A program made the translations under genes and the position numbers. A stretch of 64,000 bases of DNA from Burkholderiaceae bacterium 26 (GTDB lineage Bacteria > Pseudomonadota > Gammaproteobacteria > Burkholderiales > Burkholderiaceae): positions 124,001 through 188,000 of the forward strand of contig JYOB01000007.1 in assembly GCA_000955795.1 (NCBI GenBank). The letters are read 5' to 3'. Below, in pieces: positions 469 through 18,590 of this stretch (position 1 is its first letter; each line of letters starts with the position of its first letter). Under the pieces are notes generated by a model. That model did not search any database. It was not told the DNA's origin and worked only from the letters and a program-made list of their open reading frames with translations.

Positions 469-1788
469 ATGTTCCGCCTCCCCACGACCGCCACCGCCCC
501 GTTCTGCCCATCCGAGGTGCGCGGCACCGTTGCCGTGCCGCCAGGCTTGCCGCTGTGGAAGAAGCTGCTGCGTTTTGCGGGACCGGGGCTGCTGGTATCG
601 GTCGGCTATATGGACCCCGGCAACTGGGCGACTGACATCGAAGCCGGTTCGCGTTACGGCTATGCGTTGCTGTTCGTGGTGGTGCTCTCCAGCTTGGCGG
701 CCATGGTGCTGCAATGTCTGTCGGCGCGGCTGGGCATCGTCACCGGCATGGATCTGGCGCGCGCCTCCCGCAACCGCTATCAGCCCGGCGCATTGCGGGT
801 GCAATGGTTGCTGGCAGAGCTGTCCATCATTGCATGCGACCTGGCTGAGGTACTGGGCTGCGCGCTGGCCTTCCACCTGCTGCTGGGCGTGCCGATCCTT
901 TGGGGCGTGGCACTCACCGCGCTGGACACGCTGATCGTGCTGGGCCTGAAGGGCAAAAACTTCCGCCAGCTGGAAGCCATCGTGCTGGGGCTCATTCTCA
1001 CGATTGGGCTGTGCTACTTCGTTGAACTCGTGCTCATCAAGCCGCACTGGCCTGCGGTAGCGGCCGGGTTGATGCCCTCGTGGCAGGCCGTGAGCCAGCG
1101 CGAGCCGCTGTATCTGGCCATCGGCATCCTCGGCGCCACAGTGATGCCGCACAACCTGTACCTGCACTCATCCATCGTGCAGACGCGCATGACGGCCAAC
1201 ACCGAGGCGGCCAAGCGCGAGGCCATCGGCCTGTCGCGGCTGGACACCATCGCGTCGCTGGGCCTGGCGCTGCTGGTGAACGGCGCAATCCTGATCCTGG
1301 CGGCAGCGGCATTCAACGCGCACGGGCATCAAAACGTGGCCGACATCGAGGACGCCTACCACCTGCTGGAGCCCATTGTCGGAACGGCGCTGGCCGGGCT
1401 GCTGTTTGGCATCGCGTTGCTGGCGGCGGGGCAAAGCTCAACCTTTACCGGCACCATCGCGGGGCAGGTCCTGATGGAGGGCTTCCTCGACTTGCGCATC
1501 CCCTGCTGGCAGCGGCGTTTGATCACGCGGGCACTGGCGCTGGTCCCTGCGTTCATCGGCGTGGCGATGCTGGGTGACCACGCCATCGGCAAACTGCTTG
1601 TCATCAGCCAGGTGGTGCTCGGCCTGCAACTGCCGTTTGCGATGCTTCCGCTGATCCGCATGACGGGCGATCGCACGCTGATGGGCGTGTTTGTTAACAG
1701 CCGGTTAACGTCTTGGCTGGCGTGGGGGCTGTTCATCGTCATCAGCGTTGCCAATGTGTGGCTGGTGTGGCAAGTGCTGGCAGGCTGA
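469..1788 (+). CDS. mntH: NRAMP-family divalent metal (Mn2+/Fe2+) : H+ symporter
   Basis: 439 aa, the usual length for bacterial NRAMP proteins, with about eleven hydrophobic segments. The two metal-site signatures of the family are intact: DPGNW at residues 49-53 in TM1 and MPHN at 226-229 in TM6. Family members import Mn2+ (and other divalent metals) across the inner membrane with protons. It stands alone: divergent from the regulator fragment at 235, and followed 142 bp or more downstream by the GGDEF gene. A TATCAT hexamer at 424-429 could be a -10 element, but I see no convincing -35 element or metal-regulator box. Substrate preference cannot be read beyond the family level. Confidence 0.93.
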   Translation: MFRLPTTATAPFCPSEVRGTVAVPPGLPLWKKLLRFAGPGLLVSVGYMDPGNWATDIEAGSRYGYALLFVVVLSSLAAMVLQCLSARLGIVTGMDLARASRNRYQPGALRVQWLLAELSIIACDLAEVLGCALAFHLLLGVPILWGVALTALDTLIVLGLKGKNFRQLEAIVLGLILTIGLCYFVELVLIKPHWPAVAAGLMPSWQAVSQREPLYLAIGILGATVMPHNLYLHSSIVQTRMTANTEAAKREAIGLSRLDTIASLGLALLVNGAILILAAAAFNAHGHQNVADIEDAYHLLEPIVGTALAGLLFGIALLAAGQSSTFTGTIAGQVLMEGFLDLRIPCWQRRLITRALALVPAFIGVAMLGDHAIGKLLVISQVVLGLQLPFAMLPLIRMTGDRTLMGVFVNSRLTSWLAWGLFIVISVANVWLVWQVLAG

Positions 1789-2014
1789 GACACACATTGC
1801 GGGATTCCCCCCACTAAAAATCCGCGCACGGGGTTGCCTGCCGCCATTAGAATGCGCGCTTTGTTGCGCAATTCGGCCCCGCCCGCGCCCGCATCATCCC
1901 GTCGCGCCAGAGGGTCTCTCTTGCCCTGCCTTGAGCGCGAACCTGCCTACCGCCTCCGACCTGCCCGACGCACGCACACCCTCGCGTGACTATCAGGCGC
2001 GCCATTTTGTGCCG

Positions 2015-3031
2015 ATGATCATCGCGCTGAGCAAATGCGGCGTGCTCGGTTACGCCTTCGCGATCGTGCTGGGCTGGTCGGTCGGGCTACTGCATCGGCC
2101 GGAGCCGCTGCTTGCGCTGCTCCTGCTGCTGGTGGCGATCGTGGTGGTCGCACAGCGGTATCGGCACACCGGCATGTGGGGGCCGCTGGCGCTCACGCAC
2201 CTGCTGGCAGAGGAAGTGGCCATCATCGCGTTCGGTCATCAGGCGGGGCTCCAATGGGTACTGCCGGCGTTCTATCTGATGCCGCTTGCCACCAGCCCCG
2301 CGTGGCTCAACCAGCGCGACTTCTGCATCGCCATGGCGCTGTGCGCGGCCGGGCCCATCGTCGCGCTGCTGATCGCGCCAGAACCCCCCACGGCAATCCA
2401 CCACGGCTGGCTGGGATTGGTGCTCTATCTGCCAATCTGCATGGCTGCGGCCGCCGTCATTCACCACTACCTGCTGCGCGCCATGGCGCGGCACTTTGCG
2501 GCCGAACGCAGTCTGGCCGATCGGGCCAACACCGACCACCTGACCGGCATGCTCGCACGGCAACGCTTCTTCGAGCTGGGGACCTTTGCGGTAGAGCGCG
2601 CGCAACATCATGTCGAGCCGCTGTGCGCGCTCTACCTCGACGTCGATCACTTCAAATCCATCAACGATACGTGGGGACATGCCGCCGGTGACGAGGCACT
2701 CGTCGCGCTGTCTGATGCGCTGGCTGGCGTGCTGCGCCCGGCTGACCTGTTCGGCCGGCTGGGCGGTGACGAGTTTGCCGTGCTGCTGCCGGGTTGCGGC
2801 CTGACCGGCGCGCTTGCCGTGGTGGACAGGCTCAAGACGGCGGTGGCCGGCACGCAAACACCCGCGGGGCCGCTGACAGTGAGCGTGGGCGCCGCTCCGC
2901 TACGCCCCGGGCAGGACCTGGCACACCTGTTGGCCGATGCCGATCTCGGCCTGATGGAAGCCAAGCGTCAGGGCCGCAACCGCGTGTGCGTACCGACCGA
3001 CGCCGAGCCGAAGGCAGCGCTGCGGCAGTAA
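2015..3031 (+). CDS. Membrane-anchored diguanylate cyclase (GGDEF domain)
   Basis: About 338 aa from the ATG at 2015. The N-terminal half has five to six membrane segments; the C-terminal half is a GGDEF domain with an intact GGDEF signature. An RPAD I-site lies exactly five residues before it, so c-di-GMP synthesis with product inhibition is expected. The start is uncertain: an in-frame GTG at 2009 and a TTG at 1931 would add 2 or 28 residues, and codon bias between 1931 and 2015 looks coding, so the longer form is possible. No EAL or recognisable sensor domain. It lies 1.2 kb from the end of the nfr-like glycan operon, whose glycosyltransferase carries a c-di-GMP-binding-type domain; a functional link is inference only. 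Confidence 0.88.
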   Translation: MIIALSKCGVLGYAFAIVLGWSVGLLHRPEPLLALLLLLVAIVVVAQRYRHTGMWGPLALTHLLAEEVAIIAFGHQAGLQWVLPAFYLMPLATSPAWLNQRDFCIAMALCAAGPIVALLIAPEPPTAIHHGWLGLVLYLPICMAAAAVIHHYLLRAMARHFAAERSLADRANTDHLTGMLARQRFFELGTFAVERAQHHVEPLCALYLDVDHFKSINDTWGHAAGDEALVALSDALAGVLRPADLFGRLGGDEFAVLLPGCGLTGALAVVDRLKTAVAGTQTPAGPLTVSVGAAPLRPGQDLAHLLADADLGLMEAKRQGRNRVCVPTDAEPKAALRQ

Positions 3032-3085
3032 GGGCAGGCACGCTATGTGCGGCGCAGCATCCGTGTTTTCTGCACGGAGATGCCC

Positions 3086-4219
3086 ATGGAGTGGCTCAAC
3101 GCCCACACCTTCCTGCGCGTGCCGGCCCGCGATTGGGCCGCCGCCGCATTGACTGTGATCGCTGCATATGTGGTGCTGTCCAGTGTCTTGCACCTGATCT
3201 GCAACCGGTTTGACGCGCGCGCGCGCCGTACCGGCTACCGCTTCGACATTCTCGTCACAGCGGTGCTGCGCGATACGCATCCGCTGTTCATTGCGCTGGC
3301 CGCATTGCTCGCAGGTTCGTACTTCATCGATCTGCCAACGCGCATTGCCAACAAGCTCGACCACATCTGGTTCGTCATCATCGGTTTCCAGATTGCCCTG
3401 TGGCTCAATCGCGGCGTGAAGCTGTGGGCGCGTGACCGGCTGTCGACGCAGACCCACGCCACGCGCAACCCCGTGATCACGTCCATGACGGCGTGGGTGC
3501 TGCGCTTTGCGCTATGGTCAATGCTGCTGCTGGCCATTCTGGCCAACGTGGGCATCAACATCACGGCCTTCGTTGCCAGCCTGGGTGTGGGCGGCGTGGC
3601 GGTGGCGCTGGCGGTGCAAAACATCCTGAGTGACCTGTTTGCCTCGCTCGCCATCGGCCTGGATAAGCCGTTCGAGATCGGAGACTTCATCGTCTTCGAA
3701 TCGATTGCCGGCACAGTGCAGCACGTTGGCCTGAAGACCACGCGCATCCGCAGCCTGTCGGGCGAAGAGATCGTCGCTTCCAACACGGCGCTGCTCAAGA
3801 GCACGATTCACAATTACAAACGAATGTCGGAACGACGCATCGTCTTCACCTTTGGGGTGACCTACGATGCGCGCGCTGCGCAGCTGCAGAAGATTCCGGA
3901 CATCGTGCGCCATGCGGTGGAAGCCGCCGGCAACACGCGGTTTGATCGCGCGCACTTCAAGGAGTTTGGCGAGAACGCGCTGAACTTCGAGGTCGTGTAC
4001 TTCGTGACCGATCCGGACTTCAACCTCTATATGGATATTCAGCAACGTATCAACCTGACGATCCTGGAAGGGCTGGAAAATCTCGGCACCTCGTTCGCAC
4101 TGCCCACACGCACGATCCAACTCGTGCGTCGTGACGGCGAGCCGGTTGAACCCGAAGACCTGGCAGACCGAAAATCAACGGCAAACACCCAACGCGTCAG
4201 CGCGCGAGCTAGCGGCTGA
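3086..4219 (+). CDS. Small-conductance mechanosensitive channel family (MscS-like)
   Basis: 377 aa from the ATG at 3086, chosen because GGAG at 3076-3079 sits six bases upstream; the longer in-frame start at 3047 has no such site. Four hydrophobic segments precede the MscS core. The pore-lining stretch is rich in Gly and Ala (ASLGVGGVAVALAVQN) and is followed by the beta domain (FEIGDFIVFESIAGTVQHVG). Family members gate on membrane tension and release solutes during hypo-osmotic shock. The last 11 bp overlap the convergent glycosidase-like gene that ends at 4209. Confidence 0.9.
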   Translation: MEWLNAHTFLRVPARDWAAAALTVIAAYVVLSSVLHLICNRFDARARRTGYRFDILVTAVLRDTHPLFIALAALLAGSYFIDLPTRIANKLDHIWFVIIGFQIALWLNRGVKLWARDRLSTQTHATRNPVITSMTAWVLRFALWSMLLLAILANVGINITAFVASLGVGGVAVALAVQNILSDLFASLAIGLDKPFEIGDFIVFESIAGTVQHVGLKTTRIRSLSGEEIVASNTALLKSTIHNYKRMSERRIVFTFGVTYDARAAQLQKIPDIVRHAVEAAGNTRFDRAHFKEFGENALNFEVVYFVTDPDFNLYMDIQQRINLTILEGLENLGTSFALPTRTIQLVRRDGEPVEPEDLADRKSTANTQRVSARASG

Positions 4220-5087
4220 CCGCCACGGGCATGCTAAGGAACGCCGCATCGAGGCTGCGCCACAGCGGCCTTGAGCGCGGCACCATGTCCTGGCGGAAGT
4301 ACCACCAGAAGTAGCCGCCGACAAAGCGAGGATGCGTGACCGCGAGCCCGTAGTAATGCGCGACGAGCGCCGGCTTGCGTGCGGCATGTCGCGTCCCGAC
4401 TTCTCCAAAACCCAGCGCGGCATGCGAAAACAGTCCGCCTAGCCTAGTGAATACCGCGTTCCAATCGGGCGGAGGGATCTTGCAGTCGTCTTCATAGAAG
4501 CTGATGAAGACGTAATCGAGCCCATCGCGCAGGCGCAGCGGCACATTACGTTGCACCCACTCGAACATCGCGCGTGACGGCTGCTCGGCGCAGCCCTCGT
4601 TGTAGTACAGCGTGAGCGCCGTGCGGCCGCCGCCGGCTCTGATGACTTCATAGGCCGCCATGGTCTTGTCGATCACATCGCGTGTGGGCCCGGTCCATTC
4701 GCCGTTGATCTCGTTACCGATTTCCCAGACGTCGACGTTGCTGCCGAGCGTGTGCAGGTAAGCGGCGGCACGCTCGCGCAGTTGCGGTGCGGTGTATTGC
4801 TTGAGCGTGGAGGAATCCACCAGTTCGCCCATCACGTACGCGACGTCCCGGATGGCGGCCACCGCCCCAACGTAATGCGGCGCGTCCATGCCTTCGTCAA
4901 AGACGACGCGCACAGTAGGCGTGCGCGAGAGATGCGACAACGCGTCCACCACGGCAGGCACGTTGTCCACGGCGTCAACCGTCACGCCATACAACGGCAC
5001 AGCGCCGGCAGGCATTTCGCCCACCGGCCCTGCGGCCTCAGAGGATGCGCTCAATGCCAGCATGACAGTCGCCAGTAACAAGCGCAT
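4209..5087 (-). CDS. Exported glycoside-hydrolase-like protein (TIM-barrel type) of the glycan operon
   Basis: 292 aa starting at the ATG at 5087, with GTGAGG nine bases upstream. A signal peptide is clear (hydrophobic core, cleavage near ASSEAAG at residues 14-20). The mature part looks like a clan-A style (beta/alpha)8 glycosidase: WEIGNEING (Glu126 a likely acid/base) and GFGEVGT (Glu229 a likely nucleophile), with aromatic strands such as YVFISFYEDD and GGYFWWYF. The GH family cannot be assigned by eye. It is the last gene of the nfrB-like operon, 11 bp after the DUF2334 gene, so a role in trimming or releasing the exported polysaccharide is a reasonable inference. PelA- and PgaB-type export systems carry comparable hydrolases. 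Confidence 0.72.
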   Translation of the reverse strand: MRLLLATVMLALSASSEAAGPVGEMPAGAVPLYGVTVDAVDNVPAVVDALSHLSRTPTVRVVFDEGMDAPHYVGAVAAIRDVAYVMGELVDSSTLKQYTAPQLRERAAAYLHTLGSNVDVWEIGNEINGEWTGPTRDVIDKTMAAYEVIRAGGGRTALTLYYNEGCAEQPSRAMFEWVQRNVPLRLRDGLDYVFISFYEDDCKIPPPDWNAVFTRLGGLFSHAALGFGEVGTRHAARKPALVAHYYGLAVTHPRFVGGYFWWYFRQDMVPRSRPLWRSLDAAFLSMPVAVSR

Positions 5088-5098
5088 CCGCCTCACCG

Positions 5099-6811
5099 TC
5101 ACTTCACCGTGCTCGCGTCCGCCCAGGTGTACCCCATGCCGGTGATCCCGGTGATGATGGTCTGGAAGTCGGTATAGCCCGGCGTGCCAAGATCCGGCTC
5201 CAGCCAGAACGGATGGAAGAAGAACGAGGCAAAGCCGTCTCGTACCACCTGTGCATACGTCGCATTGGTCAGGATGTCCTGTGCGGTGTACGTCAGGCAT
5301 GACGACGGATCGATATTGCAGATGTTGTATTCCACGTTGCCCAAGTTTTCCGGAATGATGCGCTGGCTGTAGTAGTCCTTCTGAATGATGTAGGGGAAGA
5401 ACTGGCCGACCGAAAAATCATGTCCAGCGGTGGTCGAGTTCAAGGTCTGCGGGTTATCCGATGTGTAATACACCACGCGCTGATACGTGTTTTTGAAGTA
5501 CTGCGGCACCGCCTTGATGGACAACGGAGACGATTGATAGTGCGGCGCCTCCCAGGCAAACGGCGCATAGCCATTGAGCTGGAACTCCAGCAACCCCGAT
5601 GACAACCGCCCGGCTGCCCATTGCGTCGAGTCCTCGTTCACAGGCCGGTTCTGCGTGGCGAGCCAGAACTCGAAGTCGTTCGCGCTGACGGCGTTGATGA
5701 GGTTCGGGATGTTGCTGTACTGGTGCGTGTAGCCGTGCATCAGGATCTTCCCCCCACGTGGCAACGCATGGTTCAGCGCCGACTTGAGCCCCGTCGCGTT
5801 GACCAGGTGGATCGTCTGCGACACGCCGCCGTTGTAGACACCGTTCGGGTCCTTGTACAGCGGGATGGTAGCGATCGAGAACGGAATCTTCTTGCTGTAG
5901 AGGTAATCCGTCAGCGTGTTGATGGACGTCACGGTATTGGTGGCGTTGACGTCTTCCAGGCGCACCAGCGCGCGGTGCAGCGTAGGCGCGTTGGTACCCA
6001 GGATGTCATGCAGCATGTCGCACATCGCCAGGTAGCGGTCGCGTGGGCCGATATACGAGAACGGCATGTCGGCCACATACCAGAAATTGCCCGACCGCAT
6101 GATGTATGGCGCCGTTTCCTGCGTCACCGAATTCGTGATCGTCACCACGCTGCTCGCCTTGGTGGGGTCAGCCACGGAAGTCACGCCAATGTCAGGATCA
6201 GCGCTGATGGCGCCGGTCGTGGCATTGAAGGCGTAGTACTTGGTCATGGTCTGGTTCTTGTATGACACCGTATCGAAAAAGCCGGGGTTCGGCGCGCTCG
6301 TCGACGGTGCCGCGTTCATGCCGCGCAGACCGACAAAATTGATGCCGTAACGCGACGTGAACGGATACGCCGTGTTCCAGGCAAGTTCCCACAGGTTGTA
6401 TTTGAACCAAACCACGGTCTTCTGCGTGGTGGTCACATCTGAAAGGAACGCCGCCGGTATGGGGTTGTTGTAGTAACTCCCCATGTAGAAGATGGCGGTG
6501 TACTGCTCTGTCATGCCAGCCGTGTAGTTCTGCACGGGCAGCATGGTGATGGTGGTGTTGAAGTGCGCGAGCAGGTTGTACAGCATGATCGCGTACGCCT
6601 TGCCCAGATTGGTGTACTGGTCGTTGGGCGGCGCGTCGTACAGCACCAGCATCGGGGCCGGCGTGCTGGTTGTCGTTCCACCCACCGTCACGCAGATGGG
6701 CCCAAGGCCGATCGTGCAGGTTGCGGCCTGTGCTGGCGCTGTCAGCGATATGCCAAGCAGGCCGCCCGCAAAGACGAGCGCACACAGGAACTTACGTAGC
6801 AATGTCTTCAT
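5099..6811 (-). CDS. Exported DUF2334 protein (polysaccharide-deacetylase fold)
   Basis: 570 aa from the ATG at 6811, preferred over 6838 because GGAGAG lies five bases upstream and the protein then begins with a textbook signal peptide (MKTLLRK, hydrophobic core, AQA-A cleavage near residue 30). An N-terminal domain of about 240 residues comes first. The DUF2334/NodB-like part follows: RLEDVN (284-289), HGYTHQ (359-364), WEAPHY (420-425) and a late HPFW (533-536). Asp and His of these motifs are the expected metal ligands. Family knowledge links such proteins to removal of N-acetyl groups from surface glycans. Position in the operon with wecB and nfrB-like genes suggests it acts on the ManNAc- or HexNAc-type polymer in the periplasm. 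Confidence 0.82.
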   Translation of the reverse strand: MKTLLRKFLCALVFAGGLLGISLTAPAQAATCTIGLGPICVTVGGTTTSTPAPMLVLYDAPPNDQYTNLGKAYAIMLYNLLAHFNTTITMLPVQNYTAGMTEQYTAIFYMGSYYNNPIPAAFLSDVTTTQKTVVWFKYNLWELAWNTAYPFTSRYGINFVGLRGMNAAPSTSAPNPGFFDTVSYKNQTMTKYYAFNATTGAISADPDIGVTSVADPTKASSVVTITNSVTQETAPYIMRSGNFWYVADMPFSYIGPRDRYLAMCDMLHDILGTNAPTLHRALVRLEDVNATNTVTSINTLTDYLYSKKIPFSIATIPLYKDPNGVYNGGVSQTIHLVNATGLKSALNHALPRGGKILMHGYTHQYSNIPNLINAVSANDFEFWLATQNRPVNEDSTQWAAGRLSSGLLEFQLNGYAPFAWEAPHYQSSPLSIKAVPQYFKNTYQRVVYYTSDNPQTLNSTTAGHDFSVGQFFPYIIQKDYYSQRIIPENLGNVEYNICNIDPSSCLTYTAQDILTNATYAQVVRDGFASFFFHPFWLEPDLGTPGYTDFQTIITGITGMGYTWADASTVK

Positions 6812-6834
6812 GATGACTCTCCGACTCATGGCAA

Positions 6835-7287
6835 TCATGGGCGATAGAACGAGCCGTCCGCTTGGCGGTAGAGCCCGAGGTTGAAGTTGGGGCCACGATC
6901 GTGGCCACGGTCTGTACCTGCCGTCTCGTTTTCCGGCGTGCCGGGGCGGACTTCGGTCATGACCGCCGGGCGTGGCGGTGGGATGACCTGTCCGTTCTCG
7001 TCCATGACGCCATAACCGTAGGCGCGGCCGCCTCCAGTCACGGGCCTGGTTGTGATTGCTGCCACAACCGTGGGTTGCATGGGTTGCGCAGCCGTGGCCG
7101 TCGCCCTGGAAGACGCGGGCGCTGGGGCCTTCTTGTCTGGGTCAGTACCGGGACTGCCCTCGCCCGTCGCGCCGATCACGATGGCGGGCACGCCTCCATC
7201 ACCAGCCCACGGCGGCGCGACAATCAGCCACCCGGCAACAAGTGCGGAGGCAACCAACACACCGCCCCCGATTTGCTTCGCTTTCAT
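6835..7287 (-). CDS. Small unknown membrane-anchored protein of the glycan operon
   Basis: 150 aa from the ATG at 7287; AGGAGG is five bases upstream. One hydrophobic segment (residues about 8-26) is followed by a low-complexity linker rich in Ala, Pro, Thr and Gly. A short C-terminal part has a GYGVMDENGQVIPPPRP stretch and an aromatic end (FNLGLYRQADGSFYRP). I do not recognise a family. It begins 9 bp after wecB, and its stop (6835-6837) overlaps an alternative upstream start of the DUF2334 gene, so it is embedded in the operon. An anchor or linker protein of the export machinery is a guess from position only. Confidence 0.7.
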   Translation of the reverse strand: MKAKQIGGGVLVASALVAGWLIVAPPWAGDGGVPAIVIGATGEGSPGTDPDKKAPAPASSRATATAAQPMQPTVVAAITTRPVTGGGRAYGYGVMDENGQVIPPPRPAVMTEVRPGTPENETAGTDRGHDRGPNFNLGLYRQADGSFYRP

Positions 7288-7296
7288 CAAAGCCTC

Positions 7297-8556
7297 CTAA
7301 CCGTTCAGGCGGTGCTGGGTTGACGACCCTTGCGCGGTGGCACGCGCCGCTTCCAGATCGAAGATTTCGGCCTCGGTGGCCGGTTTGCGAATGAGTTGCG
7401 GGCCGCGCGCCACCATTTGTGGCTGTGTGGTGAAGGCTTTCTTCAGCGCATCGACAATGCGCCGACAGGCGTGGCCGTCGCCGTAGGGGTTGTGAGCCTG
7501 CGCCATGCGCGCGTATTCGGTGGTGTTGTTGAGCAGCGTTTCTGCTTCATCGACGATACGTTGCGTATCGGTGCCCACCAGCCGCGCGGTGCCCGATGCC
7601 ACGGCCTCCGGCCGCTCGGTGGTGTCGCGCGTCACGAGCACCGGCTTGCCCAGCGCGGGGGCCTCTTCCTGGATGCCGCCGGAATCGGTGACGATCAGGT
7701 AGGCGCGGTCCATCAGATAGACGAACGGCAGGTAGTCCTGCGGCGCAATCAGGTGAACGTTGTCATGGCCGGAGAGGATGGCGTTGACGGGCTGCTGCAC
7801 GTTCGGGTTCAGGTGCACCGGATACACAATCTGCACATCCGGATGACGCGCCGCCAGCACGCGCAGCGCCACGCAGAAGTTCTCGAACGGCTCGCCAAAG
7901 TTCTCGCGGCGATGGCCTGTCACCAGGATCATCCGACGCCCGGCCTCCAGGAACGGATAGCGCGCCGCCATCTGGGCGGACAGCGCGGCGTCGTCGTCCA
8001 GCCGTTGCTTTACGGCCAGCAGCGCATCGATGACAGTGTTGCCGGTGAGCGTGACCTGTTCGGGGTCGATGCCCTCATCCAGGAGGTTCTGACGAGATTC
8101 GGCCGTGGGCGCGAAGTGCCATGTGGTCACGGAATCGGTGACGCGCCGGTTCAGCTCTTCCGGCCATGGCGACCAGATGTTGCCGGTACGCAAACCCGCT
8201 TCCACATGCCCCACCGGAATGCGCCGGTAGAACGCGGCCAGGCTTGCCGCCAGCGTGGTCGTCGTGTCGCCGTGGACGAGCACGGCATCGGGCTTGTAGG
8301 CATCGAGCACGCCGTCGATGCCACCCAACACGTTGGACGTGATGTCGGACAGCGTCTGCCCGGGCCGCATCAGATTGAGATCAAACTCCGGAACGATGCC
8401 GAAGAGTTCCAGCACTTGATCCAGCATCTGTCGGTGCTGCGCGCTTACGCACACCGCCGACGTAAAGCCTGCCTCGGCCTGCAATGCCTGCACCAACGGC
8501 GCCATCTTGATGGCCTCCGGGCGCGTGCCGAACACGGTCAAGATCTTTCCCATCAT
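7297..8556 (-). CDS. wecB: UDP-N-acetylglucosamine 2-epimerase (non-hydrolysing)
   Basis: 419 aa from the ATG at 8556 (a second ATG follows at 8553), with GGGGAG about eight bases upstream. Family motifs are all present: [12 protein letters not shown] at the N-terminus, [17 protein letters not shown] and [17 protein letters not shown]. The enzyme interconverts UDP-GlcNAc and UDP-ManNAc in the cytoplasm. It is about 40 residues longer than typical WecB because of a C-terminal extension after the conserved core. In this operon it would supply UDP-ManNAc to the NfrB-like glycosyltransferase, as WecB does for the E. coli N4-receptor glycan. It is separated from the nfrA-like gene by 260 bp, so an internal promoter is possible. 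Confidence 0.93.
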
Positions 8557-8816
8557 CACTGCACTCCCCAGTCGTCTGCTCCGGCGCGCCCGCAAAGCGC
8601 AACAGGCACGTAGACGTGCGTGTCGCTTCCGACGCGAGGCAGACTTCGCCATTGAGCGAAGGCCGTGCCAACCGTCTCGCTTTGAGCCGCCATGGCGCTG
8701 CGACGCCATCCTTCGGATGCCGCTGCCGCTCCTCTTTGTTACCCGTTTCCCTCGGCGGTCAAAAACGTTTCATCTGCGACACCTCTGACTGGGGTCTGCT
8801 TGAATCCAGGACTGAC
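8557..8816. other. 260-bp intra-operon gap between nfrA-like gene and wecB
   Basis: No gene seen. It contains short hairpins, for example GCACGT-AG-ACGTGC at 8606-8619 and ATGGCG-N6-CGCCAT at 8692-8709. The unusual length inside an otherwise tight operon suggests an internal promoter, RNA processing or partial termination, none of which is shown by the sequence. Confidence 0.4.
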
Positions 8817-10550
8817 TTAGAACCAAAGAATGGCTCGCGCGACCACCCCCTTTGCTCGATCCGCGTGCGTCAACGGCAAGCGGTATTGCACGGTCAAATC
8901 CAGCCAACTGGCCGGCGCTGCGTAGTGCGACTCGCGAAACCAGTAGCGAAAGTTGATGCCTGGGCCAACACCCAGGGCAAGCCGCTGCCCGATCGCCTTG
9001 TTGTCGTGATCGCCCGCCAGAACGACATGCGGATAGACGGTCAGGCGATCGCTGATTGAGTTGAGCAACCACGTGTGTCCGTAGCGCATTTCAGTGCTGA
9101 CGATCATGCGGCCCTGGTTCAGGAAGTACGCGCCCTCGCCGTACACCTGCCAGGTCTGCCAGCGCGGTTTGGTGACCTGCAGGTCGAGCCCCTGATCGGT
9201 CGAAAAACCAATGCGCAGCAGCGTGTCGTTGGTTGTCAGTTGCCCGATGCGGAAGAGGCGTTCAGCGGTGAACACCAGGTTGATGTCCTTGATCGGCTTG
9301 TAGCGTGCGCCCACCGAGCCCTGCGCGGTTGGCAGGCCGGTGTTGCCGTTGCGGTCGTACACGCTGTCGTAGCCTCGCGCGAAGAGCTGGAAGATGCTGC
9401 CATCTCGATAGCCGATGCCCGGCGGCTGCCAGTAAACCTCCGCGCCAGCCTGTGCTGCGCTGACGGTGTTGGGCAGCCCAAACGCCGAAGTCTGATACGC
9501 GCCCGAGACCACCATGCCGACGGTGCGCTGCATCTGCTCGACTTCGCGCCGGTAGCCGAAGCGGCGGTCTGGCTGGAGGCGGTCGTCGCCGTTGCCACCG
9601 GTGTCGCTCTTGGCATCGGCATCGGCGTGGTCAAGGCTTTCCCGGAAGAGCTTGATGGCAGTCGGGTTGTCGCCCAGGCGCTTTGCTGCGTAGGCGGCAT
9701 CGGCGTAGTGGGTCCAGGTGCCCTCGCCCGTGGCGAAGCCACGCTGGAACGCTGCCAATGCAGCGCGGTCGTCACGCGCACGCAAGTGACTGTAGGCCTC
9801 GTTCAACTCGCGCTGGCCGATCACGCGCGGATCATTGGCGGACGTGGCTTCGCCCTGCGCTTCCGGCGCCATCGCCTGCGCGAGCAGCGCCTTGGCGTAG
9901 CGCTGGCGCGCCGGGTCCGTAGCGTGTTCGGCGGCCAGCGTGGCCGCCTGGGTTGCGCCATCCCGGTCGCCCAATTGCAGGCGTGACTGCGCGATGCGCA
10001 CTTGCACGTCGGCATCGGGGTCGTCCTTCATGCCGCTGAGCGCATCGAGCGCGGCCTGCGGATGCTTGGCGGAAAACGCGCTGTCCGACCAGGCCAGATG
10101 CAGGTTGCGCTGCTCCTGCGCGGTCCAGTCGGTGCCTTGCACGGCGCGCGCAAAGTCCCGTTCAGCGACAGCGGGGTCGTTGGCTTTCTGCGCGAGAAAC
10201 CCGTGCTGCGCGTATACGCGCGGCTCGTCTGGATACTTCTGCAGCAGCGCGTCGGCCTGCGCGCGTGCCGCACCGAGCTGGCCCTTCCGCGTGAGCACAT
10301 CCAGCAGCAGCAGGTTCAGTTGCAGGCTGTCAGGCTGCACGGCCAATGCCGCACGCGTGGCGGCTTCGGCATCGTCGAGCTTGTTGGCGTCGATGGCGTG
10401 ATAGGCCCGGTCGGCGCGAAAGTAGGCGTCGGGCTGCAACGGCGCAGGCTGCTCTGCCAGCGATACGCCGTGACACAGCGCCCACACTGCCGCGGCAATC
10501 GGCCAGCGCAGATGGCGCACGGTTAAACGGTTGGCTCTCTCTTGTGTCAT
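8817..10550 (-). CDS. nfrA: NfrA-like outer-membrane protein: TPR region plus NfrA C-terminal beta domain
   Basis: 577 aa. An N-terminal signal sequence (WPIAAAVWALCHGVSLAEQ) is followed by TPR-like helical repeats up to about residue 310 (for example YHAIDANKLDDAEAATRAAL). The C-terminal ~240 residues are aromatic and beta-rich, ending in a terminal Phe (ARAILWF) typical of outer-membrane barrels. This matches the layout of E. coli NfrA (phage N4 adsorption protein A), though that protein is near 990 aa and has more repeats. The start ATG overlaps the nfrB-like stop in an ATGA (10547-10550), so the two are translationally coupled. Expected role: outer-membrane export and/or display of the glycan made by the NfrB-like protein. 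Confidence 0.85.
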   Translation of the reverse strand: MTQERANRLTVRHLRWPIAAAVWALCHGVSLAEQPAPLQPDAYFRADRAYHAIDANKLDDAEAATRAALAVQPDSLQLNLLLLDVLTRKGQLGAARAQADALLQKYPDEPRVYAQHGFLAQKANDPAVAERDFARAVQGTDWTAQEQRNLHLAWSDSAFSAKHPQAALDALSGMKDDPDADVQVRIAQSRLQLGDRDGATQAATLAAEHATDPARQRYAKALLAQAMAPEAQGEATSANDPRVIGQRELNEAYSHLRARDDRAALAAFQRGFATGEGTWTHYADAAYAAKRLGDNPTAIKLFRESLDHADADAKSDTGGNGDDRLQPDRRFGYRREVEQMQRTVGMVVSGAYQTSAFGLPNTVSAAQAGAEVYWQPPGIGYRDGSIFQLFARGYDSVYDRNGNTGLPTAQGSVGARYKPIKDINLVFTAERLFRIGQLTTNDTLLRIGFSTDQGLDLQVTKPRWQTWQVYGEGAYFLNQGRMIVSTEMRYGHTWLLNSISDRLTVYPHVVLAGDHDNKAIGQRLALGVGPGINFRYWFRESHYAAPASWLDLTVQYRLPLTHADRAKGVVARAILWF

Positions 10551-12658
10551 GCCACACCTCCCGCAACAGATGGGTTCGGCCGCGGGTCTGGCCCAGGGGG
10601 CAGGTCCGGCGGCACAGGAATCGGGGGGATGGTGGAAGCCTCGGGTGCGGGTGCCGTGCCGGCTGCAACACCTGGGCCGGCGCCCGTCATGGATTCAACG
10701 GCCAGCATGGCCGAATGCGCCGCCGGGCCGAACACGACCGTGGTACGGCGGTTGGGATCGGCCATCTGCGCCAGCTCTGCCGACATTTCGTGATCGCACG
10801 CCATGAAGCACGCAACCTTGCGGCCGGCCGCACGGGCCAACTCTTCCAGCACTTCGCCGTCGGGTAACTCGGACACGGCGATGTTGAGCGAACCGTCTTC
10901 GCCAATCGAGAATGGCACCACGTGATGCCGCACAGCCAGGTCACGGGGCAGGCAATCGGCCAGCGCACCGAGCACCACGTTGGTCAGGCTTACGCGCGGC
11001 AGGTCAACCTGCTCGGCCAGCGCATCGGCCAACGTATCGGGCGTCACCAGGCCCTGCTCGATCAGCACTTGCCCAAGCCGCCGCCCGGTCTGGTGCTGAA
11101 TGGCGAGCGCGGCATCCAGCTGCTCCTGCGTGAGCACTTCCCACTTGACGAGCGTCTCGCCCAGCTTGCAACGCGTACGGCCCAGCGCGTCGTTCGACAG
11201 ATAGGTGTGCTGCGTCTTGTCCCAGGCGATGGGCTTGCCGGTCAGGCAGTAGATCAGGAAGATCTTCCACGCGCGGCACACCGAGAAGAAGTTGATGAAG
11301 TTGTTCACCACCAGCCGGGGCAAACACAGCACGCCTTGCAGCGGGCCATTGAGTCGGCCGACAAAGTACATGCGCTGCGCGAGCCGGTTGAACAGCAGCG
11401 CGGCATTGACAGCCAGCAGGTCCTGCATCCAGAAGCTGCCGACCACGAACGTGCCATCCGGAATCGTGACCACGCCTTTTGCCATCAGTGCGCCAAGCGC
11501 CAGATAGTTGAGCGAGAGGACATACGCCAGGATCGAGAACAGCGCCGTCAGCACGCCCTTGCGGTCCCGAAAGAACATGTAGCGGGTGATGAGATTGCCG
11601 TTCCAGCCCATCTGCAACCAGCCCTGGAACGCAATGCCGAGCACCCAGCGTGCGCGCTGGCGGTACGCCGTGCGGAACGTGCTCGGAAAGTACTCACGCG
11701 TGGCCAGCAGTTGCGGGCGTGCGCCCTTGCGCCGCCCAAAACGCCAGCGTGTGCGTGTCTTGCCCTGAGCGTCTTCAGTCGGCTCTGCGTTCTCGCAGAT
11801 CGGGAAATGCACGAATGCTTCACGCATGCCCAGTTCGCGCAGCCGGAAGCTGAAGTCGTAGTCTTCGGTGAGCGTGCTGGTGTTGAACGGAGAATCACCG
11901 CGCACCTTCATCACCGCCTCGATCGCACGGCGGCTGTAGCACAGCGCCACGCCCGCCCCGGGCACCGTGCCGGTCAGCGCCTGGCGCGCCACCAGGTCTT
12001 TCTGGTGTGTCTCGGAAAAATCATCCATGTACGTACCGGCCACCCACTCGTACCACTTGCGCTCAAGCGATAGCACCGGCAACTGCACGAGATCCTGATC
12101 GCGGATGAAGTAGTTGAAGTACTTCAGCTCCAGCGGGTGGATCACGTCTTCACAGTCGTGCATGATCACGCCCGCAAAGCGGATGCCGTGGCCTGCCTCG
12201 TGCCGGATGATGGTCTGGATGATGGTGTTCAGGCAGTCGGCCTTGCACGTCGGGCCATCGTGCGTGACGGCTGCGCGCACCACACGGCCCGGATAGCGCC
12301 GCACCATGCGCTCGACTTCGGTGGTGGTTTCCGCATCGTTGCGGTACGCACCGGCAAAGATGATGAAGCGCGTGTACTCCATCGTGGCCAGGGTGTTCTC
12401 GACCATCTTGGCGATGACGTCGTACTCCTTCCACGCCGGCACCATGATCGCGAGCCATTGCTCTTCGCGCTCGCGCAACGATTGCGCCGAGATCGTGACC
12501 GGTGTGCGCCCACGCTGCGGCCACAGCCACAGTTCCCGCACCCAGTAAAAGGCGTCCAGGAAAAAATCGTCGGCGGTGCTGATGAAGATGACGAGTGTGG
12601 TCGCCACCGTCAAGGTGTTGAGCAACGCCAGGTAAAGCTCCCATGGCAGATCGCTCAT
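10547..12658 (-). CDS. nfrB: NfrB-like inner-membrane glycosyltransferase (GT2) with C-terminal MshEN c-di-GMP-binding-type domain
   Basis: 703 aa from the ATG at 12658, with GGGGAG upstream. One TM lies at about 8-28. The GT2 catalytic core carries HDCED (167-171), TED (264-266) and QRARW (334-338), the processive-synthase signature. More TM helices lie between 365 and 475. Residues 497-550 form an MshEN motif: two 24-residue half-motifs separated by five residues, the second complete (RLGQVLIEQG, then LADALAEQ), the first with Glu where the central Gly usually sits. A Pro-rich tail ends the protein. In E. coli, NfrB is a c-di-GMP-activated glycosyltransferase that uses a WecB-derived precursor. 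The synteny here with wecB and an nfrA-like gene supports the same chemistry. Confidence 0.9.
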   Translation of the reverse strand: MSDLPWELYLALLNTLTVATTLVIFISTADDFFLDAFYWVRELWLWPQRGRTPVTISAQSLREREEQWLAIMVPAWKEYDVIAKMVENTLATMEYTRFIIFAGAYRNDAETTTEVERMVRRYPGRVVRAAVTHDGPTCKADCLNTIIQTIIRHEAGHGIRFAGVIMHDCEDVIHPLELKYFNYFIRDQDLVQLPVLSLERKWYEWVAGTYMDDFSETHQKDLVARQALTGTVPGAGVALCYSRRAIEAVMKVRGDSPFNTSTLTEDYDFSFRLRELGMREAFVHFPICENAEPTEDAQGKTRTRWRFGRRKGARPQLLATREYFPSTFRTAYRQRARWVLGIAFQGWLQMGWNGNLITRYMFFRDRKGVLTALFSILAYVLSLNYLALGALMAKGVVTIPDGTFVVGSFWMQDLLAVNAALLFNRLAQRMYFVGRLNGPLQGVLCLPRLVVNNFINFFSVCRAWKIFLIYCLTGKPIAWDKTQHTYLSNDALGRTRCKLGETLVKWEVLTQEQLDAALAIQHQTGRRLGQVLIEQGLVTPDTLADALAEQVDLPRVSLTNVVLGALADCLPRDLAVRHHVVPFSIGEDGSLNIAVSELPDGEVLEELARAAGRKVACFMACDHEMSAELAQMADPNRRTTVVFGPAAHSAMLAVESMTGAGPGVAAGTAPAPEASTIPPIPVPPDLPPGPDPRPNPSVAGGVA

Positions 12659-12735
12659 GGTTGCTCCCCTGCTCCCACCCGACGGGCGCGTTGCCAGTGT
12701 CCGGCGTACCTTCCGCCTTGCGCTGCGGCGCTCAT
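12655..12735 (-). CDS. Short leader ORF translationally coupled to nfrB-like gene (26 codons)
   Basis: An ATG at 12735 is preceded by a strong GGGGGAA Shine-Dalgarno. It opens 26 codons without interruption and stops in a TGA at 12655-12657 that overlaps the nfrB-like ATG (ATGA). The peptide is basic, with Arg-rich middle and Gly/Ala, and has no membrane segment or known motif. The combination of strong ribosome site and perfect stop/start overlap suggests a leader that controls nfrB translation by coupling. It could also be a chance reading frame in GC-rich DNA, so confidence is moderate. Confidence 0.5.
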   Translation of the reverse strand: MSAAAQGGRYAGHWQRARRVGAGEQP

Positions 12736-13349
12736 ACTTCCCCCAAGGTCTTTTCGACGTGCGACGCAACCGCTTTGCGCCGTGGCATCCGACCCAATCA
12801 CCTGCTGTCGATCGGGTTGATGCGTCGCCCTCTAGCCTGCTTCCGGTGGGGGAGAACGCGAGGACCATACCAACGCCCGCCAAAGCGCACGGCTATGCGG
12901 TGCAGCGCACCACAGACGTCTTCCAACACGCGCTGGATACGCCGGGTTGTTGCATGGGTGAACGCAAGATGCGGGCAGCGAGGGTGGCAAGATCAACGCC
13001 ACGGCATGCAACGCCATCTAATGGGCTGGGACATTCGTCCGGGCAGCGGACAAGGCCTCCCTACGAATGACGGAGGCACAGAGCGGTCAGGTGCAGGGTG
13101 TTTGGGTTAAGCGAGCGTGGAGCGCACCAGAGCGGCACGGTGCGCATGTTGCCGCATGCACTTCGGTTCGCAACGGGACGCGGCTCGCAAAGCCTTGTGC
13201 ATAAAGGATCCGCCAGAGGGATCTCACACCGCAGGCATGCCGACCACGCAGGCTGCCTAGGCGCGCGCTACGTTGTCGCGCGAATCGCAATCCAGGCCGA
13301 CAACATCGGCCCAAGCAATTCCGCAAATCGGTTACAGCGCTGAAACACG
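12736..13349. other. Long intergenic region upstream of the glycan operon
   Basis: About 610 bp between the leader ORF of the glycan operon and the chemoreceptor terminator. I see no supported gene: the longest reading frames here (up to 81 codons at 13098-13343) lack a good start site and family features. It should hold the operon promoter. I looked for a c-di-GMP riboswitch (GEMM-like core) on the minus strand and did not find one. Confidence 0.5.
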
Positions 13350-13372
13350 AAGCCGCGCTCGGGGCGCGGCTT
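13350..13372 (-). terminator. Hairpin terminator after the chemoreceptor gene
   Basis: A perfect 9-bp stem (AAGCCGCGC, loop of five, GCGCGGCTT) lies 28 bp after the stop at 13400. On the minus strand it is followed by a short TTT-containing stretch, so it is a plausible but not ideal rho-independent terminator. Confidence 0.65.
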
Positions 13373-13399
13373 GTTGAGATGAACGCTTCGACTTCTGCG

Positions 13400-15229
13400 T
13401 CAGAACTGTTCCCAGTCGTCGGCATCGTTGGAGACCGCAGCCAAGGCAAGCTTGCCAGGCTTGGGTTCGGCTGCCATGGCAGGCGCGCCCTTCGCGTTCT
13501 GAACCGGCGCAGCGGCCGGCCTGACCGGCGCAGCCGGGCGCTTGTGTGTGGCACGCACCGTCGCCACGGCAGGTTTGCGTGCCGCCGGTTTAGCAACCGG
13601 GCTGGGCACGGCAGATGTGGCCGACGCGGCAGGCGCCGCCTTTGCAACCACGGGCGCCAGCATAGGTTCAGTGTGCACACCCGCTGTAGGTAAGCGGAAC
13701 GACGCCACCGCCTCGCGCAGCACGCCGGCCTGCTCTTCCAGCGATTGAGCAGCAGCAGCAGCCTCTTCCACCAGCGCAGCGTTCTGCTGGGTCACCTCGT
13801 CCATCTGCGTGACGGCCTGGTTGACTTGCTCGATACCGGCGCTTTGCTCGTCCGATGCAGAACTGATTTCGCCCATGATGTCGGTCACGCGCTTGACTGC
13901 CACAACCACTTCGTCAATCACCGCGCCGGCTTCGGTCACCAGCGTCGAGCCGTTCTCAACGCGGCCAACCGAATCGCTGATCAACTCCTTGATCTCCTTG
14001 GCTGCCGTGGCCGAGCGCTGCGCCAGGCTGCGCACCTCACCCGCCACCACCGCAAAGCCGCGGCCCTGCTCGCCCGCGCGCGCGGCCTCCACGGCCGCGT
14101 TCAGCGCCAGAATGTTCGTCTGGAAGGCGATGCCTTCGATCACGCCGATGATGTCTGCGATCTTTTTGCTGCTGTCATTGATGCCCGACATCGTCTCGAT
14201 CACGCGGCCTACCACCTCACCGCCCTTGACGGCGATGTCCGATGCATTGCCCGCAAGCTGGCTGGCCTGACGCGCGTTGTCGGCGTTCTGGCGCACGATG
14301 CTCGTCAGCTCTTCCATGCTCGACGCCGTTTCTTCCAGCGACGAAGCCTGTTCTTCCGTGCGTTGCGACAGGTCCATGTTGCCGGCCGCAATCTGCTTGG
14401 TGGCGCTGGCGATGGATTCGCTGCCACCGCGCATCGTCACGATGGTACGGATCAGGCCATGCTGCATGTCGATGAGACCCTGCGTGAGCGCGCCCATTTC
14501 GTCTTTGCGGCTGACGGTGATGCGCTCGGTCAGGTTGCCCTGCGAGATCGCGCTGAAGTGGCCCAGCATCTTTGACAGCGGCACCGAAATCGCGCGATGC
14601 AGGCCGAATGCGCAGCCCAGCGCTGCAGCAATGCCCACCACGATGGCGCCGACGATCAGCATCAGAAATGCGTGCGAGCGAGCGACCGCGCCTTCGTAGG
14701 CCGTCTTGGCCTGCTCCGCCTGGCTGCGATCCAGCACGTCAACGGCCGCAGACAGCGCCACAAACTGCGGCGGGATGACCGTCATGACCACCTTGTCTGC
14801 GGCAGCGGCATCGTGCGCGCGCAGGGCGTTCATCAACGGCTCGATACCGTCGCGGAACAACGCGGCGCGTTTGGCTTCGACCTCGGCGGCCAGGCGCGCT
14901 TCCTCCGTCGTCATGGGCAGCGCCTTGTATTGCTTCCACGCGCCCTCCGACTTGGCGCGGTAAGCGTTGGCCTTCTCGATGATGGCCGGCACGTCGGCCG
15001 CATCCGGATGGAAAACCGCCCGATCGAGCGTCGTACGCACGATCGCGGCATTCAGCTGCGCCTTGCCCATCAGCGATGCCGAAGCGAGCTGATTGGAGTA
15101 GATCTCGTTGATATTTGCGTCGGAGGCGCGCATCCCGATCACGCCAATGGTGCCCGTAATCGTGAGCAGCAAGGCGAGCAGCGTCAGCGCTGCGTTGAGA
15201 CGGAAACGGATGGAAAGTCGATTGAGCAT
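13400..15229 (-). CDS. Methyl-accepting chemotaxis protein with CheR-tether pentapeptide
   Basis: 609 aa from the ATG at 15229 (GGTGA six bases upstream). TM1 (residues ~10-30) precedes a ~150-residue periplasmic four-helix-bundle type sensor (includes [14 protein letters not shown]). TM2 (~190-212) is followed by HAMP and a long coiled signalling domain with the hairpin tip [20 protein letters not shown], and methylation helices on both sides. The C-terminus, after an Ala/Pro-rich linker, ends in DWEQF, the xWxxF pentapeptide that tethers CheR and CheB in E. coli Tsr/Tar-type receptors. The ligand is unknown. It is a stand-alone gene, 90 bp downstream of the glycine-zipper lipoprotein gene. 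Confidence 0.95.
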
Positions 15230-15319
15230 GGGAATCACCGCGGGGTTATCGCCTCCGCTATATCGGTCGGCCCGCGCTGTTTCTGAAGCCAGCGCGGGCA
15301 CCTCCCATGCAGGATGTGG

Positions 15320-15997
15320 CTAGTAAGGCACTGCCATGTTGTTTTCGATGCGGGCGCGATCACCCACGCGCAGTCCGTTCGGGTTGTTTTGCGTGAGCGT
15401 CACGCGCGAGTTGTCGTTCAGCCGCATGGTCACGCGGTAGGTCTGGCCGACCACCGTGTTGCCTTCCACGGCGTTGCCCGCCATGGCGCCCGCCACCGCG
15501 CCGCCGATGGTGGCCACGGTGTTGCCGCGGCCGCCACCAACCTGGTGGCCAAGCAAGCCGCCCACCACGCCGCCGAGCACGGCACCTACGCCGCTCGACT
15601 GGCCGCGCACGGGCACGGCTTCGACGTATTCAACAACACCGTAACGGTTATCCGCGGGCGCTTGATAAGACTGATCGCCGTTGTTCGGATACGGCGAATA
15701 GTTCGGTTGCGAGTAAGTCGGCTGGGGCTGCGAATAGGTCGGCGCCGGCTGCTGCGGATAGGGCTGCGGCGCGTTCGGGTCATAGCTGCCGTAGCCGCTG
15801 CTGTAGGTGGTCGAGCCGATGCTGTTGCCGTAGGTATTGCTGCCCGCGGCATAACCCGCGCCATAGCCCGCGCCGTAACCGGGGTATGCCGGCGCAGTCA
15901 CGCAGCCTGTCAGCCCCGCTGCCACGGCAGCCAATGTGGCCACTGTCACCCAACGCGCTACGCGCCCTGCACGGTCCGACTTGTTCGTTGCTTGCAT
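15320..15997 (-). CDS. Outer-membrane lipoprotein with glycine-zipper domain
   Basis: 225 aa from the ATG at 15997. A lipoprotein signal with lipobox LTGC is followed by a Gly/Tyr/Ser and then a Tyr/Pro/Gln-rich low-complexity region (PQPYPQQPAPTYSQPQPTYS). A glycine-zipper hairpin (GGVVGGLLGHQVGGG and GGAVAGAMAGNAVEG) comes next, then a short beta-rich C-terminus (YRVTMRLNDNSRVTL). This architecture matches SlyB/17-kDa antigen-like envelope lipoproteins. A structural or stress-related role in the outer membrane is the family expectation. The low-complexity insert is longer than in SlyB. Confidence 0.85.
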   Translation of the reverse strand: MQATNKSDRAGRVARWVTVATLAAVAAGLTGCVTAPAYPGYGAGYGAGYAAGSNTYGNSIGSTTYSSGYGSYDPNAPQPYPQQPAPTYSQPQPTYSQPNYSPYPNNGDQSYQAPADNRYGVVEYVEAVPVRGQSSGVGAVLGGVVGGLLGHQVGGGRGNTVATIGGAVAGAMAGNAVEGNTVVGQTYRVTMRLNDNSRVTLTQNNPNGLRVGDRARIENNMAVPY

Positions 15998-17202: not shown

Positions 17203-17226
17203 GCCAGGAACACCACCATCACGCGA

Positions 17227-18483: not shown

Positions 18484-18590
18484 GCAAATGTCTCCTGATG
18501 TCTTATCGTTTGACGCCGTGCAGAAGGCATCGTCGAGCATGGTTCTTGCACTAAACCGCAAACCAAGGCTTACGGTAGCTCGATCCTTCC

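What the first reader, a model, noticed from the sequence alone, without database searches (positions are those of the whole stretch)
4209..12735. Expanded NfrAB-WecB type glycan operon with its own deacetylase and glycosidase
Seen: leftward nfrB-like GT2 with MshEN domain, nfrA-like TPR/outer-membrane protein, wecB, a small anchor protein, an exported DUF2334 deacetylase-type protein and an exported TIM-barrel glycosidase-like protein, with tight spacing and two ATGA-type overlaps. Known: in E. coli the nfrA, nfrB and wecB products make a c-di-GMP-controlled exopolysaccharide that serves as phage N4 receptor, with wecB encoded elsewhere. Inference: here the full pathway, including precursor supply and periplasmic modification/cleavage, is in one operon, like pel or pga systems. 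This would be a little-described secreted (ManNAc-containing?) polysaccharide, and a phage-receptor candidate.
Basis: partly seen in the sequence, partly recalled or inferred. Interest (0 to 1): 0.85.

Follow-up and report, generated by a model that had tools for sequence, protein, structure and literature searches.

The report
Nfr surface-sugar operon with trimming enzymes
A Ralstonia-group bacterium carries, in one gene row, the machinery for making and exporting a surface sugar polymer of the kind phage N4 uses to enter E. coli, together with two extra exported proteins that probably strip acetyl groups from the polymer and cut it, and relatives suggest that this extended kit is widespread.

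Summary
Six minus-strand genes (window 4209-12658) encode an NfrB-type GT2 synthase with an MshEN (c-di-GMP) domain, an NfrA-type porin, WecB, a small anchored protein, a DUF2334 protein and a TIM-barrel protein. The order is identical in 12 of 12 genus loci fetched whole. The Nfr-WecB linkage is already published (PMC8669469, PMC8669472). My searches found nothing in print on the DUF2334 or glycosidase partners, but figures and supplements were not seen.

New here: DUF2334 recurs beside Nfr genes in 63 of 80 loci of Burkholderiales and some other bacteria. In a sample of 299 family genomes, 41 of 42 with it carry one NfrB type, and 0 of 257 without it do. Its low-confidence model resembles PelA's middle and deacetylase domains, but sequence profiles do not link it to PelA. 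The last gene looks like a clan GH-A glycosidase with both candidate catalytic glutamates invariant in 16 of 16 rows.

Best reading: a c-di-GMP-switched, ManNAc-based exopolysaccharide that is deacetylated and trimmed in the periplasm. Activities, sugar and any phage-receptor role are inferred or untested.

The parts
10547..12658 (-). nfrB-type GT2 synthase with C-terminal MshEN domain (703 aa)
   Evidence: Pfam GT2 families and MshEN 44.5 bits (cut-off 23.1); NF012033 1149.8 bits and c-di-GMP_motif NF053729 67.9 bits (cut-off 38); 38% identity to E. coli NfrB over 614 aa with DxD, TED and QxxRW kept; MshEN region matches c-di-GMP-type MshE/PilB/PilF structures
8817..10550 (-). nfrA-type TPR + outer-membrane barrel protein (577 aa)
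   Evidence: NfrA_C PF13283 163.9 bits (cut-off 25) plus weak TPR matches; 22% identity over 318 aa to E. coli NfrA
8554..8816 (-). conserved 263-nt non-coding gap before wecB
   Evidence: aligned in 10 genus sequences, 81% mean column identity; no Rfam match; function unknown
7297..8553 (-). wecB, UDP-GlcNAc 2-epimerase (418 aa)
   Evidence: TIGR00236 515.7 bits (cut-off 210); Epimerase_2 419 bits
6835..7287 (-). small protein with an N-terminal membrane-anchor-like segment (150 aa)
   Evidence: no Pfam or NCBIfam match; kept in 12 of 12 genus loci; segment judged by eye
5099..6811 (-). exported DUF2334 protein, candidate polymer deacetylase (570 aa)
   Evidence: PF10096 142.5 bits (cut-off 26); fold model (mean pLDDT 54.5) resembles CE4-type deacetylases and PelA; E286, D287, H359, H363, H533 in 43 of 43 rows
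4209..5087 (-). exported TIM-barrel protein, candidate clan GH-A glycosidase (292 aa)

Best explanation
The operon is a complete, extended Nfr-type exopolysaccharide system. WecB turns UDP-GlcNAc into UDP-ManNAc. NfrB, switched on by c-di-GMP at its MshEN domain, polymerises ManNAc (alone or with another sugar) and passes the chain through the inner membrane. In the periplasm the DUF2334 protein removes acetyl groups (most likely N-acetyl) from part of the chain, giving a partly cationic polymer, and the GH-A protein cuts the chain to control length or to clear chain that strays in the periplasm. The small anchored protein holds or guides these enzymes. NfrA's TPR part receives the processed chain and its barrel lets it out. 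It thus works like the Pel and PNAG systems, with synthase and porin of the Nfr kind and with deacetylase and hydrolase as separate proteins. Shown here: gene content, conservation, co-occurrence, kept active-site residues, fold resemblance. Taken from E. coli papers: c-di-GMP control and need for WecB. Inferred: sugar identity, de-N-acetylation, cutting, role of the small protein.
For: Families and motifs. Order kept in 12 of 12 genus loci. The same parts re-arranged in Trinickia, Burkholderia, Paraburkholderia, Pararobbsia and Collimonas loci, which argues for function rather than inertia. DUF2334 beside nfrB/nfrA in 63 of 80 loci, 55 of those 63 on the same strand within 400 nt of another system gene. 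Family sample of 299: 42 genomes with DUF2334, 41 of them with the window-type NfrB, the 42nd (G007) with a fragment of it at a contig edge; 0 of the other 257; glycosidase in 41 of 42 and in no genome without DUF2334. Class sample of 369: NfrB in 7, DUF2334 in 7, both in 4 (own included), in all 4 within 10 kb. DUF2334 fold: Foldseek first hit PelA 9cgy, E 1.6e-5. Glycosidase: E126 just after strand 4 and E229 in strand 7, the clan GH-A layout (the clan rule itself is recalled).
Against: No activity was tested. The DUF2334 model has mean pLDDT 54.5; its PelA match superposes badly as a whole (rmsd 13.1; TM 0.34/0.25) and ranks 41st by Z (12.5) behind single-domain deacetylases (best 16.2); profile-profile comparison with PelA-type frames gave E 0.34. 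Its motif 1 reads RLED, not the CE4 TFDD or the PelA HxDxD layout. Positions 421 and 424 vary (E in 36 of 43, H in 39 of 43), including several Nfr-linked copies. 17 of 80 DUF2334 loci have no nfr gene nearby. The glycosidase fold list also holds other TIM barrels (KDO8P synthases, GH18, GH20). One genus genome lacks the system.
Confidence: 0.68

Rival explanations
1. The DUF2334 and GH proteins are present but are not de-N-acetylase and endo-glycosidase of this polymer: DUF2334 removes O-acetyl groups or only binds the chain, and the GH-A protein is a binding or clearing factor.
For: Motif 1 is RLED and motif-3 positions vary; YbcH (DUF4434) seems to replace or accompany the GH protein in other loci (57 of 63 linked loci have one or the other), as a scaffold could.
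Against: Candidate metal-binding and acid residues are in 43 of 43 rows and both candidate glutamates in 16 of 16.
Confidence: 0.2
2. The two enzymes act mainly on some other envelope or foreign polysaccharide and share the operon for common regulation.
For: Unlinked second copies exist: the own genome has two more DUF2334 genes and a GH relative next to a GH114 protein; 17 of 80 loci are unlinked.
Against: 11 of those 17 come from record titles that also gave a linked locus in the same list; the family-level co-occurrence with one NfrB type is almost perfect.
Confidence: 0.08
3. An ordinary Nfr cluster; the extra genes are neighbours carried along and nothing new is made.
For: Nfr-WecB clusters and variable accessory genes are already in print (PMC8669469, PMC8669472).
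Against: The extra genes stay with nfr genes despite rearrangement and in distant families.
Confidence: 0.04

Closest known systems
E. coli nfrBA-ybcH with wecB (N4 glycan receptor, NGR)
   Same: GT2-MshEN synthase (38% identity over 614 aa), NfrA-type porin, WecB supply
   Different: wecB inside the operon; no YbcH (Pfam DUF4434) found in the 12 genus loci but a DUF2334 and a GH-A-like protein, for which the E. coli operon region shows no gene; NfrA is shorter (577 against 990 aa)
Achromobacter-type nfr cluster with BcsB and O-acetyltransferases (PMC8669472), seen here as L036-L042
   Same: wecB, NfrB and NfrA together
   Different: BcsB and, in 3 of the 6 tree rows of this clade, AlgX- and MBOAT-type genes in place of DUF2334/GH; the NfrB is 45-48% identical to the window's
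Pel system (PelA)
   Same: PelA combines a TIM-type hydrolase, an alpha/beta domain and a deacetylase (PMC12022489, section 4 part 1); the DUF2334 model aligns 49-570 on PelA 280-774
   Different: hydrolase is a separate protein of another fold family; GT2 synthase of Nfr type; deacetylase motif 1 differs; no significant profile similarity. The own genome has a separate GH114 frame of 1052 aa, a PelA candidate
Pga/PNAG system (PgaB)
   Same: deacetylase plus glycosidase plus TPR porin logic (recalled; PMC5933820 seen only in a listing)
   Different: PgaB fuses the two activities; synthase and porin are Nfr type here

Membership tests
Nfr/NGR exopolysaccharide system | GT2 synthase with DxD, TED, QxxRW and a C-terminal MshEN domain | tested here: met
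Nfr/NGR exopolysaccharide system | TPR plus NfrA_C outer-membrane protein, adjacent to the synthase gene | tested here: met
   PF13283 163.9 bits; 4-nt overlap
Nfr/NGR exopolysaccharide system | WecB-type epimerase available | tested here: met
   three copies in the genome
Nfr/NGR exopolysaccharide system | YbcH (DUF4434) auxiliary protein in the operon (its loss in E. coli gave only a partial effect, PMC8669469 passages) | tested here: not met
   YbcH-like queries gave no hit in 12 of 12 genus loci
Nfr/NGR exopolysaccharide system | c-di-GMP binding and activation | not testable with these tools
   domain present only
NCBIfam NF008411 (E. coli NfrB equivalog) | score over 1170 bits | tested here: not met
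   560.3 bits
NCBIfam NF012033 (PRK15489 glycosyl transferase family protein) | score over 537 bits | tested here: met
   1149.8 bits
N4 phage receptor | phages with N4-like receptor proteins that adsorb by way of the polymer | not testable with these tools
   no Ralstonia or Burkholderia name in the tally of 118 gp65-like records
PelA / CE21 | fold of the alpha/beta plus deacetylase domains | tested here: inconclusive
   first Foldseek hit, but low-confidence model and poor superposition
PelA / CE21 | sequence-profile similarity to PelA | tested here: not met
   hhalign E 0.34 against six PelA-type frames, (shallow alignments, so weak test)
PelA / CE21 | motif 1 with His-x-Asp-x-Asp (PaPelA H526, D528, D530; PMC12022489) | tested here: not met
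   R284-L-E286-D287, R/E/D in 43 of 43 rows
NodB/CE4-type deacetylase | HxxxH metal motif | tested here: met
   H359 and H363 in 43 of 43 rows
NodB/CE4-type deacetylase | TFDD motif 1 and Arg motif 3 (recalled) | tested here: not met
   RLED and WExPHY in the window protein
NodB/CE4-type deacetylase | (beta/alpha)7 deacetylase fold | tested here: inconclusive
Clan GH-A glycoside hydrolase | barrel with acid/base Glu after strand 4 (preceded by Asn) and nucleophile Glu at strand 7 (recalled rule) | tested here: met
   N125-E126 after strand 120-125, E229 in strand 224-231; both Glu in 16 of 16 rows
Clan GH-A glycoside hydrolase | assignment to one GH family by sequence | tested here: inconclusive
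   no Pfam match for the window protein; 3 of 16 relatives match GH53 weakly (best 4.7e-4)
Clan GH-A glycoside hydrolase | catalytic activity | not testable with these tools
   -

The most novel reading that the evidence does not exclude
Nfr-type glycans are at root partly de-N-acetylated ManNAc polymers, processed by DUF2334 and a glycosidase; E. coli's three-gene system is a stripped-down branch that lost the deacetylase, and NGR phages, which carry glycan-deacetylase tailspikes (stated in PMC8669472), do from outside what the lost host enzyme does from inside. Burkholderiales that de-acetylate the chain themselves would then be shielded from, or opened to, a different set of phages than lineages that O-acetylate it.
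Probability: 0.2. Interest if true: 0.85.

Novelty: new variant of a known kind. Interest (0 to 1): 0.6.

Why it matters
The chemical nature of the N4 glycan receptor polymer was still unknown in the two 2021 papers, and my later searches did not bring up a paper that settles it. A conserved deacetylase and glycosidase that travel with its synthase are natural probes: what they cut and release would tell the sugar, its acetylation and perhaps its linkage. The comparison also suggests that one synthase-porin core has been fitted with different periplasmic finishing kits (DUF2334 with GH or YbcH; BcsB with O-acetyltransferases), and gives the uncharacterised family DUF2334 a concrete context.

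Tried and rejected
PelA homology by sequence: hhalign of the 43-row DUF2334 alignment with six GH114-containing frames gave E 0.34; rejected as proof. A first attempt took the wrong frames and was redone. PDB sequence searches with the DUF2334 protein, its profile, the GH protein and its profile gave nothing credible. Which GH-A family the glycosidase belongs to: undecided. Families missing from the VIA lists are not excluded.

A sigma-54-like box in the nfrA-wecB gap (window 8656-8670, one mismatch): the pattern is expected by chance about 10 times in the window, so it is not claimed as a promoter. Rfam found nothing in window 1-20000. Promoter and terminator scans were at chance level.

Phage angle: DUF2334 and the GH protein have no match in 50,697 phage records. 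N4 gp65-like proteins occur in 118 records, none with Ralstonia or Burkholderia as first word of the name; for the 60 kDa N4 protein two of the names in the tally were not shown, so no such statement is made.

The neighbour of the second DUF2334 copy (L054) was first thought a synthase by its size; its sequence looks like a beta-propeller repeat protein by eye and it was dropped.

Full report
WHAT IS THERE. The window lies in a 5.68-Mb genome. Its genus is Ralstonia: contig lengths of genus genomes G005, G012 and G015 equal those of records titled Ralstonia. The synthase scores 1149.8 bits with NF012033 (cut-off 537) and 560.3 with the E. coli NfrB equivalog (cut-off 1170, not met). Against E. 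coli NfrB from K-12 it is 38% identical over 614 residues, and the alignment shows HDCEDV/HDAEDV, LTEDYD and QRARW kept. Its MshEN region matches PilF, PilB and MshE structures, among them the V. cholerae-type MshE entry 5htl, E 4.9e-9. In the first of the two MshEN-type motifs the usual Gly is replaced, as it also is in E. coli NfrB (motif recalled). c-di-GMP binding of the E. coli protein (Kd about 1 uM) is from PMC8669469 (passages). NfrA, WecB and DUF2334 match their families clearly; the small and the last protein match none.

CONSERVATION. Twelve genus loci fetched whole all show nfrB-nfrA-wecB-small-DUF2334-GH in this order; of the remaining three genus genomes two have the set at contig breaks and one has no match to nfrB, DUF2334 or GH. 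In Trinickia, Burkholderia, Paraburkholderia and Pararobbsia the parts are present but re-ordered or on opposite strands, most often with a YbcH-like gene added.

LINKAGE FROM THE DUF2334 SIDE. A scan of named genomes with the DUF2334 alignment gave 106 relatives, of which the best 80 loci were kept. With my own profiles, 63 of 80 have nfrB and/or nfrA (or the MshEN part) on the fetched stretch, which is up to 10 kb on each side; of these 63, wecB is seen in 48, GH in 28, YbcH in 47, BcsB in 12, and GH or YbcH in 57; in 55 of 63 DUF2334 lies on the same strand within 400 nt (between stop-to-stop frames) of another system gene. Of the 17 others, 10 have no partner, 5 the small gene only, 1 wecB only, 1 YbcH only; several stretches are short, and 11 of the 17 come from record titles that also gave a linked locus. 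The 80 loci are not 80 independent genomes, and the set was chosen by DUF2334.

LINKAGE WITHOUT THAT BIAS. In 299 genomes of the family, DUF2334 was found in 42, the GH protein in 41 and any NfrB at E 1e-80 in 93. The window-type NfrB (58% or more identical) is in 41; all 41 have DUF2334; the 42nd DUF2334 genome, G007, has a window-type NfrB fragment at a contig edge. None of the 257 others has it; Fisher p 8e-50, which ignores kinship. The 52 genomes with only other NfrB types have no DUF2334. The GH protein is in 41 of the 42 (not in G075). In 369 genomes drawn from the class, NfrB (E 1e-60) is in 7, DUF2334 (E 1e-30) in 7, both in 4 with the own genome, and in all 4 the two lie within 10 kb. 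A fifth, G453, has DUF2334 beside YbcH and nfrA on a 4.6-kb contig; G358 and G436 show no partner on short stretches. So about half of NfrB loci (4 of 7 here) have DUF2334: it is common, not universal.

TREE. A tree of 74 NfrB GT domains (84 before near-duplicates were dropped; the window's own sequence was not included, its 91-98% identical genus relatives were) puts the Ralstonia operon type in a clade of 30 rows (100/100), all with DUF2334 and 28 with GH. E. coli NfrB sits, with one other row lacking DUF2334, beside seven DUF2334-linked Burkholderiales rows (100/97). Six rows with BcsB, three of them also with AlgX- and MBOAT-type genes, form a clade without DUF2334 (99/93). The label needs 5 changes against 10.5 in shuffles. 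One locus (L147) has DUF2334 together with an AlgX-type gene, so the two finishing kits are not strictly exclusive. Because most rows were picked through DUF2334, the suggestion that E. coli lost the gene is only a lead.

MECHANISM. See Best explanation. The strongest steps are synthesis and export (Nfr type, by family and motifs); the weakest are the sugar and the kind of deacetylation. ManNAc rests on the E. coli genetics (PMC8669472 sections 9 and 11, PMC8669469 passages) and on wecB in 48 of 63 linked loci. Against a simple reading of wecB adjacency, this genome has two other wecB-type genes.

WHAT IS IN PRINT. PMC8669469 (passages only) reports NfrB homologues in 406 species beyond E. coli, frequent wecB and DGC linkage and an alginate-type acetyltransferase cluster in Simplicispira. 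PMC8669472 (passages, sections 9 and 11) reports the Achromobacter cluster with BcsB and O-acetyltransferases. Neither set of passages mentions DUF2334 or a glycosidase; figures and supplements were not seen, so such genes may be drawn there. DUF2334 occurs in one paper of the library (listing only) and in none together with exopolysaccharide; NfrB with Burkholderia gave two papers (listing only); YbcH with NfrA three (listing only); the biofilm-operon survey PMC7112194 has no nfr term or DUF2334 in its main text. Subscription papers and preprints are largely not held.

VERDICT. A real and well-conserved operon and a new variant of a known system. The extension by DUF2334 and a GH-A-type protein is the news; the phage-receptor claim for this host is open.

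Noticed in passing
window 8554-8816: Conserved non-coding gap between nfrA and wecB in 10 aligned genus sequences, with an invariant TGGCACGGCCTTCGCT stretch read on the minus strand; sigma-54-like, but the pattern is at chance level in the window.
   Followed up: partly
window about 1868-4219, + strand: A GGDEF protein and an MscS-type channel converge on the operon's end. MscS is there in 12 of 12 genus loci; the GGDEF gene is next to it in 10 of 12, displaced by about 4 kb in L035 and off the stretch in L034. A candidate local c-di-GMP source.
   Followed up: partly
window 13400-15301, - strand: A methyl-accepting chemotaxis protein gene upstream of nfrB, found in 12 of 12 genus loci.
   Followed up: no
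L054 (G000:C5), L055 (G000:C44): Two more DUF2334 genes in the own genome, 83% and 67% identical, outside any nfr cluster; the first follows a copy of the small gene.
   Followed up: partly
L079, about 7324-11067 (G000:C9): A second GH-A-type protein (40% identical) lies about 2 kb from a GH114 protein in the own genome; similarly close pairs show in other genus genomes.
   Followed up: no
L190 (G000:C9:85481): A 1052-aa frame with a GH114 domain followed by a 1348-aa frame: probably a separate pel locus in the same genome (second frame not annotated).
   Followed up: partly
L083 (CP099603.1): Comamonadaceae plasmid with wecB, a GT2 without MshEN, a small gene, DUF2334, an NfrA_C protein and DUF4434 in a row, with an EAL-domain gene nearby.
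   Followed up: partly
L084 (NZ_CP091982.1): Burkholderia vietnamiensis plasmid with a lone DUF2334 gene between two diguanylate cyclase genes.
   Followed up: no
L128, 9989-15376: Three DUF2334 frames in tandem inside an nfr cluster of a Burkholderiales MAG.
   Followed up: no
L141, 910-2526: In Paraburkholderia franconis the GH-like stretch reads in one frame with a LuxR-type domain, and DUF2334 is split over two frames; possibly a decayed locus.
   Followed up: no
L036-L038 (G006, G004, G014): Three genus genomes carry a second, BcsB-type nfr system beside the one described.
   Followed up: partly
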